Shown: positions 4,638 through 33,835 of the stretch, piece by piece | Position numbering within the stretch: the stretch's first letter is position 1 | Layout: every line of letters starts with the position of its first letter | Assembly (NCBI RefSeq): GCF_001311075.1 | Contig: NZ_BBAD01000029.1 | Coordinates: 1 to 35,003, forward strand | Length of the DNA: 35,003 nt | Source of the DNA: Secundilactobacillus similis DSM 23365 = JCM 2765 | GTDB taxonomy: Bacteria > Bacillota > Bacilli > Lactobacillales > Lactobacillaceae | Direction: 5' to 3' | The notes under the pieces: generated by a model | The model's input: the letters and a program-made list of their open reading frames with translations, nothing else | The model's database searches: none | What the model was told of the DNA's origin: nothing | Program-made: the position numbers and the translations under genes

Positions 4638-5403
4638 ATGAACAACAATCCAATCGGGGTGTTTGACTCAGGTGTCGGCGGCATCAGCACGCTGAACGAG
4701 TTAACGAAGCAGTTCCCCAATGAACGGTTTATTTTCTATGGTGACACAAAGAATGCGCCCTACGGCAGTAAAACGCCGGATGAGGTTTTTCAGTGCACCC
4801 AGCGCGTCATGGACGAGCTATTGGCACAACACGTTAAGGCGGTTGTGATTGCTTGTAACACAGCAACCAGCGCAGCCAAGCCACGGTTGATGCAGGCTTA
4901 TCCGGAGACCCCAATAGTCGGGATCGAACCAGCGCTAAAGGAGGCCATTGATGATGGCAGCCACAATATTTTGGTGATGGGCACACAGTTAACGGTTCAC
5001 TTGCCAAAGTTTCAAACGATGATGGCCAAGTACCAAAGTGACCACAACATTTACGCCGTGCCGTGTCCCGGTTTAGCGGACTACGTTGAGCGGGATGACC
5101 GATCCGGCAGCGTTGAACGAGTTGCTGACGACGTTATTGGCACCGTACTTGGATAAGCCAATCGACGGGATCGTGTTAGGCTGCACCCACTATCCATTTG
5201 TGCGGGATGCGATTAGCGCGCTGTTTAAGCCGGGAATTCCGGTTCACACTGGGTTTGAAGGGGTTGCGAAACAACTTCGCCACGTGTTAGTTGAACATGA
5301 TGGCTTGACGGCTGCCACTACGCCGGGTGATGTGACTTGGATGAGTAGTGAACCTGATGCAGTTGATTATTATCAAAGTTTGTATGACATGTTGAAAAAG
5401 TAA
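4638..5403 (+). CDS. murI: Glutamate racemase (frameshifted near 5087)
   Basis: Converts L-glutamate to D-glutamate for peptidoglycan synthesis in the cytoplasm. Expected motifs are present: DSGVGG at residues 10-15, YGDT, the first catalytic Cys73 in ACNTATS, and the second catalytic Cys in GCTHYPF downstream. The reading frame breaks inside DYVE: the next frame resumes GMTDPAALNELLTTLL and runs to the stop. The total length needs one extra base removed or two restored. MurI is normally essential, so the break is most likely a sequence error. The rebuilt protein is about 255 residues, slightly short for the family. Confidence 0.9.
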
Positions 5404-7356: not shown

Positions 7357-8730
7357 TTGGGCAAAACACTATTTGATAAACTTTGGGATCGGCACGTGGT
7401 GGCCGGTGAACCGGGGGAACCACAGTTGATTTACGTTGACTTGCAGATGTTGCATGAAGTCACCTCACCACAGGCCTTTGAAGGGTTACGGCAAAATCAT
7501 CGAACAGTTCGTCACCCGGAAAAGAACTTTGCTACGTTGGATCATAACGTCCCAACTGAGGATATTTTTAACATTCAAGACGCAATTCGCGAAAACAAAT
7601 TGAAACGTTGGAAGCTAACGTCAAGGAATTTGGAATTCACCTCTGTGACTTAGGCGATAAGGAACAGGGCATCGTTCACGTGATTGGCCCGGAATTAGGA
7701 CTGACGAACCCCGGCATGGTGATTGTTTGTGGTGATTCACATACCGCGACTCACGGGGCATTTGGCGCGATGGCCTTCGGAATTGGGACCAGTGAAGTGG
7801 AGCACGTGCTGGCGACGCAGACGATTTGGCAAACTAAGCCGAAAAATATGGGCGTTCACGTTCATGGCAAGTTACCAAAGGGCGTTTACGCTAAGGACGT
7901 TATTCTTGGGTTGATTGCCCGCGAAGGGGTGGCCTTTGGGAATGGTTATTCCGTTGAGTATTACGGTGAAACCATCGAAGGCTTAACGATGGAAGAACGG
8001 ATGAGCATCTGTAACATGACGATCGAAGGTGGCGCTAAATACGGTTGTATCAAACCCGACCAAACAACTTTCGATTACATTAAAGGCCGTAAGTATGCGC
8101 CAGAAGATTACGAAACGGCCGTGGCGGATTGGAAGATGCTATATACTGACAGTCCTGACGATTTTGATAAAATTATCGACTTTGACGTTAGTGACTTGGC
8201 ACCACAGGTTTCTTGGGGCACTAATCCGGGCATGACTGTGGGTGTCACAACGCCGTTCCCTGAAATCAAGGATGAGGACGATCGAAAGGCCTATGACTAC
8301 ATCGGCTTAAAACCCGGCCAAACCGCGCAAGATATTCCAGTAACTTATGCTTTCTTTGGGTCATGTACGAATGGCCGGTTATCTGATTTGAAGGCTGCCG
8401 CCAAGGTAATGAAGGCCACCACATTGATCCGAAAGTGACCGCTTGGGTGGTACCGGGGTCGCGGCAGGTTAAGCTTGCTGCTGAAGAGCTGGGATTGGAC
8501 AAAATCTTTACCGATGCGGGTTGCGAATGGCGCGAGCCTGGTTGTTCAGCCTGTTTAGCCATGAATCCCGATAAGATTCCAGCGGGTGAGCACTGTGCCT
8601 CGACTACTAACCGGAACTTTGAAGGTCGGCAAGGGTTGGTGCGCGGACGCATTTAGCCAGTCCTGCCATGGTTGCTTATGCGGCCTTAAACGGACACTTC
8701 ATCGACATCAGAAAGGTGGCAGAATCATGA
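7357..8730 (+). CDS. leuC: 3-isopropylmalate dehydratase large subunit (three frameshifts)
   Basis: Aconitase-family subunit that, with LeuD, isomerises 2- and 3-isopropylmalate in leucine synthesis. It starts at TTG, with GGAGGG 8 bases before it and the usual [13 protein letters not shown] start. Family signatures follow: [19 protein letters not shown], and the three [4Fe-4S] cysteines in GSCTNGR and [13 protein letters not shown]. Three single-base losses break the frame: A-run at 7592-7595 (restores [14 protein letters not shown]), near 8414 (restores [10 protein letters not shown]) and G-run at 8633-8635 (restores [11 protein letters not shown]). Repaired length is about 458 residues, normal. 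The stop overlaps the leuD start. No leuA or leuB lies nearby, so the true substrate could be another 2-hydroxy acid. Confidence 0.88.
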
Positions 8731-12028: not shown

Positions 12029-13031
12029 CAGCAAATGAATATGATTCTCCTCACACTGATCAATCATCTCTTGTGGCCAAAGCGATGCTTGCACTTCGCC
12101 CACGTGGGCCTTGCCCAACAACAGCATGCAGAGCCGTGATTGGCCGATCCCGCCACCGATGGTGAATGGCACTTCGCCGTTCAAGACCATTTGGTGGTAT
12201 GGGTATTGGAGCCGGTCTTCGGCGTCAGCTAACTTGAGTTGGCGCTTCAAGCGTCGGCGTCGACCCGGATGCCCATGCTGGAGATTTCGATGGATTGGTT
12301 TAATGGTTCGTACCAGAATAAGATATCACCGTTTAATGACCAATCATCGTAGTCAGGGGCGCGGCCATCGTGGCGTTTGCCACTCTTCATGGCGCCACCG
12401 ATCTTCATTAAGAAGACACAACCGAGTTCCTTGGTGATTGCATTTTCGCGTTCCTTTGGTGTTAAATCAGGGAAGCGGTCTTCCAATTCCTGAGTTGTCA
12501 CAAAGTGAATTTCGTCAGGTAAGTGGTGCACTGATTGTGGGAACTTATACCAAACTTCGTGTTCCATGTGCTTGATCACTTTGAAGATTTGACGAACGGT
12601 GTCCTTCAAGGTATCCAGATTTCGTTCATCGCGACTGATGACCTTCTCCCAGTCCCATTGATCCACGTAAGCGGAATGGTAGTTGTCCAGGTCTTCGTCT
12701 TTACGAATGGCGTTCATGTTGGTGTAAAGGCCTTCGTGCATGCCAAAGCCGTAACGCTTTAAAGCCACACGCTTCCACTTAGCCAATGAGTGAACGATTT
12801 CAATCGTGGCATCGCTTCGTCTTGCATGGTAAAGGAAACGGGTTGTTCAACCCCGTTCAGATTATCGTTTAAGCCGGTTGATTTTTCAACGAACATTGGC
12901 GCTGAAAGCCGGGAAAGGTTAAGTTGTTTGCCGAATTCATCTTGGAACGTCTCGCGGATGTAGCGGATGGCATCCTGGGTTTCCCGAACAGTCAATTTCG
13001 GGTTGTATGATTCTGGAATAATTAAATGCAT
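12026..13031 (-). CDS. asnA: Aspartate-ammonia ligase (two frameshifts)
   Basis: Makes asparagine from aspartate, ammonia and ATP in the cytoplasm. The enzyme resembles class II aminoacyl-tRNA synthetases. The N-terminus ([22 protein letters not shown]), the central [19 protein letters not shown] and the C-terminal [14 protein letters not shown] are all typical. Two single-base losses split it: near 12808 (restores [15 protein letters not shown]) and in the run at 12249-12250 (restores DADALKRQLKL). Repaired length is 335 residues, as expected. AAGGAG precedes the ATG. A TATAAT box lies at 13087-13092. The stop codon is the first triplet of family II copy 4. Confidence 0.92.
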
Positions 13032-13086
13032 CGTGTTGTGCTCCTTATTGCGAGTTGATTGGTTGTTACATGAGATTAATATTAAC

Positions 13087-13092
13087 ATTATA
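13087..13092 (-). promoter_or_regulatory. Candidate -10 box of asnA
   Basis: TATAAT on the minus strand about 56 bases upstream of the asnA start; the -35 is weak. Confidence 0.5.
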
Positions 13093-16517: not shown

Positions 16518-17347
16518 TTAGTGCGCAAACAGGCTGAAATAGCCGACAACCACTAGCCCCAGTACGATGCGATACCAGCCGAACAGCTTGAAGTCGTTTT
16601 GCTTGATGTAGTTTAGCAGGAAGCGAATCGCAATGTAGGCCACGATGAACGAGACCAGCGTCCCGGTGATCAGGATGACGATTTGGCTATAGGTGAAGCT
16701 GTTACCGTGCACGAAGTATTTGACTAACTTCAACAACGACGCCCCAAACATGGTGGGAATCGCGAGGAAGAAGGAGAATTCGGTGGCAACGTAGCGGGAA
16801 GCGCCAATGAGAATTGCGCCTAAGATGGTGGCACCAGAGCGGGAGGTTCCGGGAACGAGGGAGAGAATCTGGAACAGGCCAATCGCAAGTGCCAGCTTGA
16901 TTGGCAGACTGTTCAGGTCGGTGAAACGGGCAGTCCGGTTTCGGTTGAAGTTTTCGATGATGATGAACAGGATCCCGTAGCCAATCAACGTGCTGGCAAT
17001 CACCTGCCAAGTGGTGAGGTGAGCGTCCATCCAGTCGTTAAGCGGCAACCCGATGACAACGGATGGCAGGACGGCCAAAATCACCTTGGCCCAAAGCGTC
17101 CAGGTCTGATGTCGTTCGATTCGATTCTTGCTGGGTGCCCAGGGATTAAGCTTGTTGAAGTAAAGCACCACCACGCTAAGATGGCGCCAAGCTGAATCAC
17201 CACCATAAACATGTTGATGAACGCGGTGGGCTGACTGAGGTGAATGAAATCATCAGCTAAATAAAGGTGGCCAGTTGAACTAATCGGGAGAAATTCGGTA
17301 ATCCCTTCAATGATGCCGAGAATGATGGCTTTAATAATGTCTAACAC
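16518..17347 (-). CDS. uppP: Undecaprenyl-diphosphatase (frameshifted near 17170)
   Basis: Membrane enzyme that recycles undecaprenyl pyrophosphate to the monophosphate carrier for wall synthesis, and often gives bacitracin resistance. The first motif [17 protein letters not shown] is at residues 11-27 and the second, PGTSRSGAT, is in the downstream frame. One base is missing in the GTGG repeat near 17167-17174; restoring it gives [16 protein letters not shown] and a 276-residue protein, the normal length. The gene is often essential, so the frameshift is probably an error. It is alone between two FMN-barrel paralogues. Confidence 0.92.
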
Positions 17348-27994: not shown

Positions 27995-28381
27995 TTAGCT
28001 AGCCTGAGTTCCCGGTTCAAGGGTGACATCGTCTCGGTGGATCAACGTGATCTCTTCGCCTTCCGCACGCCGGGCGTCAATGTTGCATTCACCCCACTTG
28101 CAGAGTTGATTGAGGATCTTGTTGAGGCTTTCGCCACGGTCGGTCAAGGCGTATTCAACCTTGGGAGGCACTTGTTCGTACACGTGCCGACTGACGATGC
28201 CGTCAGCTTCTAATTCACGAAGTTGCTGTGTCAGCATCTTTTGGGTGATTTGGGGAATGGCCCGTCTCAATTCACTGGTTCGCATGGTTGCGTGGCGTAG
28301 ATGACAGAGAATGATGGCTTTCCACTTACCACCGATAATTTCCATCGTGGCTTCAACGCCAATATTGTAGGTTTTACTCAT
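27995..28381 (-). CDS. HxlR-family transcriptional regulator
   Basis: Winged-helix regulator of 128 residues. The family opening is clear (ATMEIIGGKWKAIILCHL at about 11-28), then the recognition region RTSELRRAIPQITQKMLTQQLRELE, the wing (VSRHVYEQVPPKVEYALTDRG) and a dimerisation helix. Members often sense electrophiles or redox state through a Cys, and Cys26 is in a position where that is conceivable. AGGGTC precedes the ATG. It is divergent from the MFS gene at 28531, its likely target. Confidence 0.87.
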   Translation of the reverse strand: MSKTYNIGVEATMEIIGGKWKAIILCHLRHATMRTSELRRAIPQITQKMLTQQLRELEADGIVSRHVYEQVPPKVEYALTDRGESLNKILNQLCKWGECNIDARRAEGEEITLIHRDDVTLEPGTQAS

Positions 28382-28530: not shown

Positions 28531-29187
28531 ATGTTAAACGAACAACGCCAAAGTGCAACGGCAACCTGGACGCTTCTCGCGCTCGCACTAAGTGCCTTTG
28601 CGATTGGTTCAACGGAATTTATTAGTGTTGGGGTGATGCCCTTAATTATCAAGACCTTTGGGATTAGTTTGAGTACCGCGGGTCTAACGGTCTCAATCTA
28701 CGCAGCTGGGGCACCGGTGCTAACTAGTCTGACTGGCCGATTTGAACGTAAGACACTCCTGTTAGCGGTGATGGTCACCTTCATTGTAGGGAACTTGATT
28801 ACGGCAACGGCACCAAGTTTTGCGTTATTATTATTTGGACGGGTGATTGCAGCGTTAGCGCACGGCCTGTTTATGTCAGTAGCCACGGTGATTGCTGCAA
28901 GCGTGGTCCCAGCTAACCGGCGGGCTTCAGCAATCGCAACCATGTTTACGGGTTTGACGGTGGCCACAGTGACCGGGGTGCCGCTGGGCACATTTATTGG
29001 CCAACACGCGAGTTGGCGGATGTCCTTTACCGTCATTGCTGCAATTGGCTTCGTGGCGTTAATTGCCAGTCAAATCTTAGTGCCAGCTAAGTTACCAAAG
29101 CCAGCAATGGGGCAACGTGGTGGCTTCTGGCGTATTTTGAAACAAAAGGAATTGCTGTTGGGATTGATCGTAACGGCAATCGGTTAC
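28531..29187 (+). pseudogene. MFS efflux transporter, N-terminal half (interrupted)
   Basis: Drug/metabolite efflux protein of the AraJ/PbuE-like branch of MFS. ALSAFAIGSTEFISVGVMP is the standard first helix, and helices 1-6 run on to GLIVTAIGYG at about residue 220. After this the sequence switches to non-homologous codons (RVSQFTES) and stops at 29217. GGGAGG precedes the ATG. The remaining C-terminal part lies beyond the TnpB element at about 30964-31181, and about 100 residues are absent. The pump is therefore non-functional, unlike genes here with simple one-base frameshifts. Confidence 0.85.
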
Positions 29188-30962
29188 GGGCGAGTTTCCC
29201 AGTTTACTGAAAGTTAGGCGTAATGCCCCGGTTTTTAAACCGGGGATGTTAGCCCGTTTGCTTAATGCAATTTTGATACTTAGCTTTATTAGCTTTAAAA
29301 TTTTCCACTTTTTAGCATTCTGGTGATTATTTCGCACATCTTGATATAATCGACAAAAAATGGGGCAATTTTTTCTCGGTGCACCGACTTTGTCTGAAAT
29401 GAACATATGTTCTTGATGGGCACTTCTTTTCTTAGTAAAATTAACTTATAAATTACGAAGGGAGGTGCTTATCATCAAAGGCAAAATGTCTAACGAACGT
29501 AAACAGGCTATCAAGGCTCGAATGAAGGCGGTTAAGGCAACCTTCACTTACAGTTTTGGTTTCCGAATTCGGGTCTATCCCAGTGCGCAACAAGCTGATA
29601 TTATGTTGTTCAACTGCCATACAGCACGGTATATTTATAACGCTAAAGTCTTTCGAGATTGGGGCTCTAAGCAACATGCCAAATGGCTGAAGACTGATTC
29701 TCGATTAGATACCAATATGCCAAGTATGGCAATCCGTAATTATCAGGCATCCTGGAACATGTGGCGGAAGGTCAACTCTGTGGGGACACCGAAACCCAAA
29801 CGTAAAGACCAATATCGATTCAGTTATCAAACGAAGAACAGTTATCCGGCCAAGTCTCGTAAGGCTGGTGAGGACATTTTTAACGGCGCTAAAGTTAAAG
29901 TGACCGATCCTCACCACATTCAGATTCCTAAAGTTGGCCGCTTGAAGCGTCGGCCAACAACATTAAACACCTACCACACGAAAAAGGGGTTCGAATTGGC
30001 GTAACCACTATTAAACAGGAACCAAATGGTGCTTGGTATGTATCCTTTCAAATCAAAGCAGATCATCCTTTAAAACAAGCGTTGCCGAAAACCGGTTCAG
30101 AAATCGGCATTGATTTAAATTTATCCAACTTCTTAACCGATGATCAAGGTCATCAGGTGCCGAATCCCCGCTATTATCGTAAGATGCTAACAAAACTGGC
30201 TAAACAGGACCGTAAAGTAGCTCGTCGGAGGCGGCGAGCGAAGAAAGAACATCGCCGTTTGTTAGACAGTCGGAATTATCAAAAAGCCCGGCGACAAAGA
30301 GCAAATCTTCATAGTCATATCGCCCATCAACGCAATGACTTCCTGCATCGCACTTCCACGGTACTGATCCAGAACCACGATTTGATCGTGTCCGAAGAAC
30401 TACGCGGGAAGAATATGTTGAAAAATCATGCCCTGGCGATGAGTATTAGCGATGTGGGCTGGCGTACCTTTATTAGTCAGTTAGCGTATAAGGCCGAATT
30501 GTATGGACGAACCTATATCACGGTTAATCCGGCTTATACGACCAAACGCTGCCATTGCTGCCTGGTGATCAATCATCAGGTTAAACTGGGTCAAGAAGAA
30601 TGGCGTTGCCCGAACTGTCATGTTTTTCATATTCGCGACCATAATGCTGCTATTAACATTAAAAATAAGGGATTGGCGCTGTTCCAAGAAGCCTAAATCT
30701 CACGAATAATCCATCGGTGCCGTGGCAACTCCGGATTCCGACTCCAAATGGCTGGGGGTAAAGCCCTGTAAATAGGTAATTAGCGTGTTAGACCGAAGTT
30801 GAACGATAACTGAGGCAGTGCTGTATCTAAGCAAGCAGAAACGGTCAGGTAGACTGATTATCGTTCAGGAATGCTTCCGAAACGGTTAAACGCGAAAGAA
30901 GATTGCTGCTCAATAACTACCGCTGTTTCAATCCACCTACTTTAGTGGGTGGTAGTTGAAAC
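29188..30962 (+). mobile_element. IS200/IS605-type element with TnpB only
   Basis: Left end: after TTAC (29184-29187, candidate target/TAM) comes a hairpin made by CCCCGGTTT and AACCGGGG at about 29227-29246. The element carries a tnpB gene but no Y1 transposase tnpA, so it would need TnpA in trans. Right end: a stem CCACC/GGTGG around ACTTTAG, then GTTGAAAC, after which host MFS sequence resumes. Exact ends are not proven. The interrupted gene also lost internal sequence, so insertion was followed by a deletion or arose through recombination between copies. Confidence 0.75.
29486..30696 (+). CDS. tnpB: TnpB RNA-guided nuclease (frameshifted near 29985)
   Basis: IS605-family TnpB, the ancestor type of Cas12 nucleases. 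The N-terminal part is basic and helical (RIRVYPSAQQADIMLF onward). The RuvC-like active site can be placed: Asp in GIDLNLSNF, Glu in LIVSEELRGKNM and the final Asp in IRDHNAAINI. Between the last two is a zinc ribbon with CHCC and CPNC. The frame breaks in the A5G4 run at 29981-29989; one restored base gives KKGVRIGVTTIKQE. Repaired length is about 404 residues from ATG 29486. GTG 29465 is another possible start next to GGGAGG. Confidence 0.87.
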
Positions 30963-30963
30963 G
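30697..30963 (+). ncRNA. Putative omega (re)RNA region of the TnpB element
   Basis: The 267 bases between tnpB and the right end are non-coding and rich in inverted repeats, as expected for the guide-RNA scaffold of TnpB. The terminal stem CCACCTACTTTAGTGGGTGG followed by GTTGAAAC resembles from memory the ACTTTAG-loop hairpin at the 3' end of the ISDra2 scaffold. The guide would then be host sequence starting GATGCAAATTGC at about 30963. Boundaries and activity are inferred. Confidence 0.6.
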
Positions 30964-31181
30964 ATGCAAATTGCTGAAATAAGTTACCCGCAGACGTTCA
31001 GTTGGCATCGTCACTGAACATTTCAGCGTTTAACGTCGGCGTTATGCTAGGGTCATTTACCGGTGGCCAAATTGTGAGCCAGTTCGGCTTGGCAATGACG
31101 CCGGTTGGTGGTCTGGTGTTGAGCTTGCTGGCCCTTGGTTTGATTGGGGTGGCGGTTCGGATGGCAAAAACAACGGCTTAA
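30964..31181 (+). pseudogene. MFS efflux transporter, C-terminal fragment
   Basis: Continues the gene interrupted at 29187: KLPADVQLASSLNISAFNVG, then MLGSFTGGQIVSQFGLAMTP and a last helix, ending RMAKTTA. This is the classic end of this MFS branch. Just upstream, MQIAE in another frame suggests one more indel near 30978. The fragment has no start signal and probably is not translated. A terminator follows at 31207. Confidence 0.8.
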
Positions 31182-32885: not shown

Positions 32886-33349
32886 CTTGTAAGGCTTAAT
32901 TAAAATAAATAAAATGACTAGGCCATTAGTGGCGCGTAGTTAAGCAGGTAGCATAAAAATGTGTCAGAAAAGTGACGGGATTATGACTATCTGCAACAAA
33001 AGTTACAGCAATGTAACAATGTTCATGAAATCTTCAAATTTTCGCCGTTTTTTAGACGTTTTATGTTATGATTAGGTACAACACTAGTAGTATGACTGTT
33101 CGAATTTGGACAGTGGAACATCAGTGACTAGGTATAGAACTGGTAATTTCACATTCCTTTGGGGAAGTCGACGTCATGGCTTGCTGGTGTTGAGAGGGTG
33201 ATCGATCGGGGGATAGTGATCACTGAAACCGCAACGAACGGGGATCGCTTTGTGCAATTAAGTCGTTGCTAAGTCAGTGTTACGATTACCCGCTTGATTG
33301 TTCTCGCCAGAATACACCAATTTTTTGGAGGAATATTGGGGGGAATGTT

Positions 33350-33835
33350 ATGGCTAGTAAGAAAGATATTACAAACCAGCGTTTTGGTCGGTTAGTTGCA
33401 CTGTCCGTGAGTGGTCGGGATGAGCGAAACGGCGATCTCATGTGGCGGTGTCAGTGTGATTGTGGCAACATCGTTAACGTCGATGGTGCCCGATTGCGTT
33501 CAGGTGCAACTCGGAGTTGTGGGTGCTTGCGACGGGAAACTAGTCGTCGGAGCTCACGGCAAAATGATCAATTCATCGCGCAAATCGGTGATGCAAGTTC
33601 ACTGAAGACCGTTGACGGTATTTCACTAGCATCCATTCGGATGTCACACCGCAACAAGTCCGGCATGATTGGGGTGTCTTATGATAAGGCAACCAATAAG
33701 TGGCTTGCGCGGTTGATGGTAAATGGTCGCTACGTGTTACTGAAGAGTTTTGACACCCGTAACGAGGCTTGCGAAGCTCGTCAGATGGCAGAACAGATGT
33801 ATCACGTGAAGCGCCAAGAAGCTGTCGAAGGTTAA
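33350..33835 (+). CDS. Small AP2-domain protein with Cys-rich N-terminal module, paralogue
   Basis: A 161-residue relative of the protein at 11158. Shared blocks are NQRFGRLVALSV, WRCQCDCGNIVNVDGARLR, SGATRSCGCLRRE, then a linker about 20 residues longer, and the AP2-like SHRNKSGMIGVSYDKATNKW with GRYVLLKSFDTRNEACEARQ. ATG 33350 follows GGGGGGAA; a longer frame back to 33266 has no homology to the paralogue. No nuclease domain is present. The upstream gap 32886-33349 is long and unassigned, so a structured leader is possible. Role unknown. Confidence 0.75.
   Translation: MASKKDITNQRFGRLVALSVSGRDERNGDLMWRCQCDCGNIVNVDGARLRSGATRSCGCLRRETSRRSSRQNDQFIAQIGDASSLKTVDGISLASIRMSHRNKSGMIGVSYDKATNKWLARLMVNGRYVLLKSFDTRNEACEARQMAEQMYHVKRQEAVEG

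What the first reader, a model, noticed from the sequence alone, without database searches (positions are those of the whole stretch)
28531..31181. TnpB-only element in an HxlR-controlled efflux pump, with loss of about 100 codons
The MFS gene stops matching its family at GYG and resumes at KLPADVQLASS, so roughly 100 residues are gone in addition to the insertion. Simple IS605-type insertion does not delete target DNA. Deletion after TnpB cleavage, or recombination between two element copies, would explain it. The right end keeps a plausible omega RNA hairpin, and the guide would be the flanking MFS sequence from about 30963.
Basis: partly seen in the sequence, partly recalled or inferred. 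Interest (0 to 1): 0.52.

Follow-up and report, generated by a model that had tools for sequence, protein, structure and literature searches.

The report
Jumping gene and deletion in transporter
A small RNA-guided jumping gene sits inside a drug-pump-type transporter gene of a lactic acid bacterium where 276 bases are missing, and its patchwork sequence suggests that two copies once sat in the gene and recombined; this is a tidy but ordinary kind of event.

Summary
In an unnamed Secundilactobacillus draft genome, an HxlR-adjacent MFS gene is interrupted by a tnpB-only IS200/IS605-type element (29208-30960) placed 3' of TTTAC. The match to relatives does not end at GYG: it continues one base out of frame to FPVY and resumes right after the element (T-MQIAE). 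Against 17 of 17 Lactobacillaceae homologues examined, 92 codons (276 nt) are missing. The same genome holds a near-complete second copy, a partial third copy, and one tnpA+tnpB element with like ends and the only Y1 transposase match. The window copy is a mosaic: like one sister copy left of about 30440, like the other to its right (0 of 5000 permutations as extreme). Not excluded: deletion before insertion, a transposase-made deletion, unrelated gene conversion, or assembly collapse. The single-base frameshifts are probably sequencing errors, since four housekeeping genes that I checked in the window are split the same way. No same-species empty allele was available. Ordinary kind; modest interest.

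The parts
27995..28381 (-). HxlR-family regulator gene, divergent from the MFS gene
   Evidence: Pfam HxlR 2.9e-38; a divergent HxlR motif lies beside the MFS gene in 14 of 17 relatives
28531..29207 (+). 5' part of the MFS transporter gene, up to and including target TTTAC; one base missing after GYG (~29189) and a 12-nt gap versus relatives
   Evidence: Pfam MFS_1; 82% aa identity to S. silagei residues 1-225; alignment to L010 and L025
29203..29207 (+). TTTAC target site / putative TAM
   Evidence: TTTAC precedes the left end in all 5 left ends seen in the genome (window, C23, C77, C3, C59)
29208..29250 (+). left end with CCCCGG...CCGGGG hairpin
   Evidence: seen in the 5 left ends, with small changes; 29208-29270 folded as RNA, z -3.5
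29486..30696 (+). tnpB (start codon inferred), frame broken by a one-base deletion near 29946
   Evidence: sister copy L002 reads through; indel located; Pfam OrfB_IS605 and Cas12f1-like_TNB; PDB TnpB 8h1j/8bf8 about 3e-43 for L002
30435..30447 (.). crossover point of the mosaic element
   Evidence: max chi-square 40.8; 0 of 5000 permutations reach it
30814..30960 (+). right end / putative omega RNA scaffold ending in the TTTCAA...TTGAA hairpin
   Evidence: fold z -2.2, 3 of 200 shuffles as good; sub-threshold Rfam CRISPR-DR15 match 30925-30962
30961..30978 (+). putative guide = right flank, MFS codons T-MQIAE
   Evidence: translation against relatives; only perfect match in the genome, with 7 further places at 2-3 mismatches
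30961..31181 (+). 3' part of the MFS gene, one base missing after GAA
   Evidence: 65% aa identity to S. silagei residues 328-392

Best explanation
Two co-oriented copies of a tnpB-only IS200/IS605-type element inserted at two sites 276 bp apart in one HxlR-adjacent MFS gene (left TTTAC|ACx at Val-Tyr|Thr; right, probably TTTAC|ACG at Leu-Tyr|Thr). They were presumably mobilised in trans by the TnpA of the related element on contig C59. Homologous recombination between the two copies, at about 30440, removed the 276 bp and one copy's worth of element, leaving one mosaic copy with the left flank of the first and the right flank of the second. Shown: 92-codon loss, element ends, mosaic structure, a single Y1 transposase match elsewhere in the genome. 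Inferred: that the right site carried TTTAC, that both insertions existed, and that the crossover caused the deletion.
For: Mosaic: of 121 informative sites, left of 30435-30447 the window copy agrees with L003 at 50 and with L002 at 18; right of it, with L002 at 45 and with L003 at 8. Max chi-square is 40.8 against a null maximum of 18.5 in 5000 permutations. The L002-L003 distance is about the same on both sides (9.2%, 10.5%), while window-L002 falls from 10.1% to 2.9% and window-L003 rises from 6.0% to 10.1%, so the window copy is most simply the recombinant. Both junctions lie at element ends, and the breakpoints are 92 whole codons apart in relatives. The right boundary ranks 5th of the 285 boundaries scored for resemblance to TTTAC among 17 relatives; the relatives L010 (best DNA match) and L025 (best protein match) have Tyr-Thr there. 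The genome holds several copies and one Y1 TnpA match, in an element with like ends.
Against: Mosaicism could come from gene conversion unrelated to the deletion; only three copies could be compared, and L003 lacks the left 475 nt or so. TTTAC at the exact right boundary (303) is found in 1 of 17 relatives; 5 of 17 have it two bases further on (305, the top-ranked boundary), which would fit only if the right end were two bases longer than the sister copies suggest. L010 and L025 are two changes from TTTAC there. Two insertions into one gene within 276 bp is a coincidence in itself. One base is missing about 18 nt to each side of the element; if these gaps are real the net loss is not a whole number of codons. 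No same-species allele was available, and the assembly looks error-prone.
Confidence: 0.55

Rival explanations
1. Deletion first: slippage or short-homology recombination between two Tyr-Thr-type stretches removed 276 bp in frame; the element then inserted at TTTAC of the fused site.
For: In relatives the three bases before the boundary are TAC or TAT at the left in 17 of 17 and T[AT][CT] at the right in 15 of 17; the fused empty site would be a normal TTTAC target.
Against: Does not predict the mosaic element. The repeat is very short. None of the 17 relatives examined shows the deleted gene without the element.
Confidence: 0.14
2. Transposase-made deletion: TnpA joined the left end of an element at the right site to an upstream TTTAC 276 nt away on the same strand, releasing the interval.
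For: Would need a left-hand TTTAC, which is present and occurs in 7 of 17 relatives; explains clean ends; a TnpA gene is present in the genome.
Against: Does not predict the mosaic. The reaction is my extrapolation from the peel-and-paste scheme, not something I found described.
Confidence: 0.1
3. Assembly collapse: the genome really holds element - 276 bp - element, and the assembler joined the left half of one copy to the right half of the other.
For: Draft of 176 contigs; three contig ends fall inside copies of this element (C77, C3, C134); four gene pairs picked as suspicious are all frameshift-split; one base is missing near each junction; the mosaic could be a chimeric consensus.
Against: The copies differ by 3-10%, and the crossover interval is only about 11 nt between informative sites; no contig gave a close match to the 276-bp piece, although a very short contig could have been discarded.
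Confidence: 0.13
4. TnpB cleavage of the gene followed by error-prone end joining removed the 276 bp.
For: TnpB-family protein and right-end hairpin present.
Against: Repair would be expected to nibble the element end or leave a random breakpoint; instead the right end matches the sister copies to its last base or so and the loss ends at a TTTAC-like boundary. tnpB is frameshifted as sequenced, though that may be a sequencing error.
Confidence: 0.06

Closest known systems
ISDra2 (IS200/IS605 family, TnpB RNA-guided nuclease; PMC8612924, passages read)
   Same: TnpB homology over 32-405 of the 410 aa given (E about 3e-43, L002 copy); insertion 3' of a pentanucleotide; right-end RNA with guide in the flank (here only inferred)
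   Different: TTTAC instead of TTGAT; no tnpA inside; tnpB frame broken as sequenced; 276-bp target loss
IS605-type element on contig C59 of the same genome (tnpA and tnpB divergent)
   Same: left end 90% over 48 nt and right end 94% over 31 nt; TTTAC target
   Different: carries an open tnpA frame and a clearly different tnpB
Recombined IS200/IS605 elements of Halanaerobium hydrogeniformans (PMC7290912, abstract and other passages read)
   Same: authors infer recombination between element copies, and describe hybrid inserts in tnpB that have lost the sequence between the two parent inserts, a closely similar deletion by recombination
   Different: in the passages I read that loss lies inside tnpB, not in a host gene between two elements
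IS-IS recombination and adjacent deletions (PMC11708052, abstract and passages read)
   Same: single IS left at a deletion joint
   Different: other IS families; 'IS200' does not occur in that text (IS605 not searched there)

Membership tests
IS200/IS605 superfamily, tnpB-only (IS1341-like; group name recalled) | TnpB with OrfB_IS605 and Cas12f1-like TNB domains | tested here: met
   Pfam, (window fragment; sister copy)
IS200/IS605 superfamily, tnpB-only (IS1341-like; group name recalled) | subterminal hairpins at both ends, insertion 3' of a short fixed sequence | tested here: met
   5 of 5 left ends follow TTTAC; hairpins folded as RNA; lack of terminal inverted repeats judged by eye only
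IS200/IS605 superfamily, tnpB-only (IS1341-like; group name recalled) | no tnpA in the element | tested here: met
   only one Y1_Tnp match in the genome, on C59
TnpB-omega RNA system | 3' non-coding RNA ending at the right end with the guide in the flank | tested here: inconclusive
   30814-30960 fold z -2.2, 30697-30820 z +1.2; no Rfam omega RNA family matched; no RNA data
TnpB-omega RNA system | RNA-guided cleavage with TAM | not testable with these tools
   no assay; TTTAC as TAM is inferred from the insertion site
Deletion by recombination between two IS copies | remaining copy is a hybrid of two copies, each with one original flank | tested here: inconclusive
   hybrid met: mosaic test; that each parent sat at one of these two flanks was not observed
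Deletion by recombination between two IS copies | an ancestral or sister allele with two copies, or with either copy alone | not testable with these tools
   no same-species genome found; 0 of 14 other genus genomes have the element at E<=0.001

The most novel reading that the evidence does not exclude
The exchange was driven by TnpB: cuts at empty donor joints, guided by the two copies, triggered repair from the wrong copy, so that RNA-guided homing between closely spaced copies made both the mosaic and the clean 276-bp deletion. TnpB-only elements would then actively carve deletions between neighbouring target sites.
Probability: 0.08. Interest if true: 0.5.

Novelty: new member of a known kind. 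Interest (0 to 1): 0.24.

Why it matters
It is a clear natural example of a tnpB-only element that is mosaic and sits at a clean gene-internal deletion, in a genome with a plausible trans-acting TnpA. It shows how transposons that by themselves do not delete target DNA could still remove gene segments once two copies lie close together. If TnpB cutting promotes such exchanges, it would add a deletion-making role to TnpB; that is untested.

Tried and rejected
Intact allele in the same species: the best match outside the window's genome is 74% DNA identity (59 other genomes); no match in the plasmid collection. The weaker matches (L014-L024) were not examined one by one. Missing 276 bp elsewhere in the assembly: no close match. 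Close relatives of the element elsewhere in the family: 73 of 397 genomes match at E<=0.001, but outside the window's own genome the listed matches are pieces of at most about 430 bases (64-100% identity) and none runs end to end, so statistics of flanking deletions could not be made; the search scored only two candidates per genome. Rfam: nothing above a gathering score; the CRISPR-DR15 resemblance of the right-end hairpin is below its cut-off. The region 30697-30820 does not fold better than shuffles (z +1.2). Reading the frameshifts as gene decay was rejected: four ORF pairs that I chose because they looked split (glutamate racemase, leuC, asnA, uppP) all hit adjacent parts of one family (4 of 4), which points to base-calling indels, though I saw no reads. 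MAFFT on joined flanks misplaced the right flank because of the gap; right-flank homology rests on translation and a protein search. Literature: four searches that ran; I read passages of PMC7290912, PMC11708052, PMC8612924 and PMC11870625 and only listings for the rest. I do not claim that the event type is unreported.

Full report
What is there. The window is contig C29 of an unnamed draft genome (3.45 Mb, 176 contigs, 93.3% complete, 6.9% contamination). An HxlR gene (27995-28381, minus) faces an MFS gene that starts at 28531. A divergent HxlR motif is found beside the gene in 14 of 17 relatives; of the three without (L028, L030, L041), L041 has only 43 bases upstream of the match. That HxlR controls the pump is an inference from this layout.

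Borders. The DNA however continues to match relatives for GASFPVY with one base missing, up to TTTAC at 29203-29207. On the right, 30961 onward reads ACG ATG CAA ATT GCT GAA, that is T-MQIAE of the relatives, then one base is missing, then KLPADVQLASS. The element between, 29208-30960, is defined by comparison with other copies: contig C23 (L002, full length, 93%), contig C134 (L003, 1.28 kb, 92%), and left ends at C77, C3 and C59. All five left ends seen follow TTTAC. Sister right ends agree to TTGAA (L003) or TTGAAA (L002), so the last base is 30960, give or take one. Left-end GTAA and right-end TTCAA, each 5' of its hairpin, are complementary to TTAC and TTGAA, which resembles guide-cleavage pairing in IS608-type elements (recalled; no call). 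TTTAC occurs 35 times on the plus strand of the window and four times in 28531-31181 (28945, 29026, 29203, 31056), so it is not rare.

Size of the loss. GYG and the right-hand Leu are 99 codons apart in all 17 rows (15 distinct loci), and the same spacing held for all 17 genes (L010 and the 16 Lactobacillaceae loci of the 80; the other 64 were not examined singly). In these 17 the left boundary follows Tyr in all (then Thr in 14, Ser in 3); the right one precedes Thr in all and follows Phe in 11, Tyr in 4, Leu in 1 and Met in 1. With these breakpoints 92 codons are missing. A search of the genome with the S. silagei protein found the two halves (82% and 65% identity) and otherwise only MFS paralogues at 18-30%.

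Element biology. The sister copy's TnpB (L002) aligns over residues 32-405 with ISDra2 TnpB (8h1j/8bf8, about 3e-43). The window's own tnpB has a one-base deletion near 29946. The only Y1 transposase match in the genome is on C59, in an element with divergent tnpA and tnpB, like ends and TTTAC. It is the likely source of TnpA in trans (inference). Folded as RNA, the right-end region does somewhat better than shuffles (z -2.2; 3 of 200 as good; L002 z -2.1) and the left end clearly so (z -3.5), but 30697-30820 does not (z +1.2). No Rfam omega RNA family matched. The 18-base flank has no other perfect match in the genome; seven places match with 2-3 mismatches.

Mosaic. Aligning the window copy with L002 and L003 gave 121 informative sites. 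Left of 30435-30447 the window agrees with L003 at 50 and L002 at 18; right of it with L002 at 45 and L003 at 8. None of 5000 permutations reached the observed chi-square (40.8; largest null 18.5). L002 and L003 are about equally distant on both sides (9.2% and 10.5%), so the switch most simply lies in the window copy. A second breakpoint in the left part was not supported (1208 of 2000 permutations as good); in the right part the best chi-square was 2.9 and was not permuted. About 475 nt at the left could not be tested since L003 is cut off there.

How it most likely arose. Two co-oriented copies 276 bp apart, then a crossover, would leave exactly this: one hybrid element, left flank of one site, right flank of the other, clean ends. 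The left TTTAC is present in 7 of 17 relatives. At the right, TTTAC stands exactly at the boundary in 1 of 17 and two bases downstream in 5 of 17; the boundary ranks 5th of the 285 scored for resemblance to TTTAC, the one two bases downstream first. L010 and L025 have Tyr-Thr there (TAT AC), two changes from TTTAC. That the right site was TTTAC in this species is a prediction, not a result.

What weakens it. The assembly looks frameshift-prone: four ORF pairs that I picked as suspicious are all halves of one gene, so the one-base gaps in the MFS gene and tnpB should not be read as decay. The two MFS gaps lie about 18 nt from each junction, which I cannot explain; they could also mark an assembly problem, and assembly collapse of a two-copy locus is a live rival. 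Gene conversion could have made the mosaic independently. Only three copies were compared.

Known or new. Recombination between IS200/IS605 copies, with loss of the sequence between repeated inserts in tnpB, has been inferred before (PMC7290912, passages), and deletion by recombination between IS copies is well documented (PMC11708052, abstract and passages). TnpB's proposed role in restoring the element at donor joints is described in PMC8612924 (passages) and PMC11870625 (passages). I file this as a new member of a known kind. The bold reading, that TnpB cutting at neighbouring sites drove the exchange, is not excluded but has no direct support.

Noticed in passing
window 4638-5400, 7357-8438, 12247-13088, 16518-17347: Glutamate racemase, leuC, asnA and uppP are each split into overlapping ORFs in different frames, suggesting base-calling indels across the contig.
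   Followed up: partly
L142 (G000:C59:13400-17400), 745-2668: IS605-type element with divergent open tnpA and tnpB frames, TTTAC target, ends like those of the window element but a different tnpB; the only Y1 transposase match in the genome.
   Followed up: yes
window ~29189 and ~30979: One base is missing from the MFS gene about 18 nt to each side of the element; symmetric and unexplained.
   Followed up: no
window 30925-30962: Right-end hairpin resembles a CRISPR repeat (Rfam CRISPR-DR15, 24.2 bits, below its cut-off of 36).
   Followed up: no
window 33266-33835: ORF with a weak AP2 DNA-binding domain match (below Pfam's cut-off), possibly phage or mobile-element related.
   Followed up: no
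window 28531-29207: The MFS gene lacks four codons (12 nt, in frame) present in L010 and L025 after YAAG.
   Followed up: no
L004 (C77 end): A left end of the element lies near a run of AAGCC-like short repeats at a contig end.
   Followed up: no
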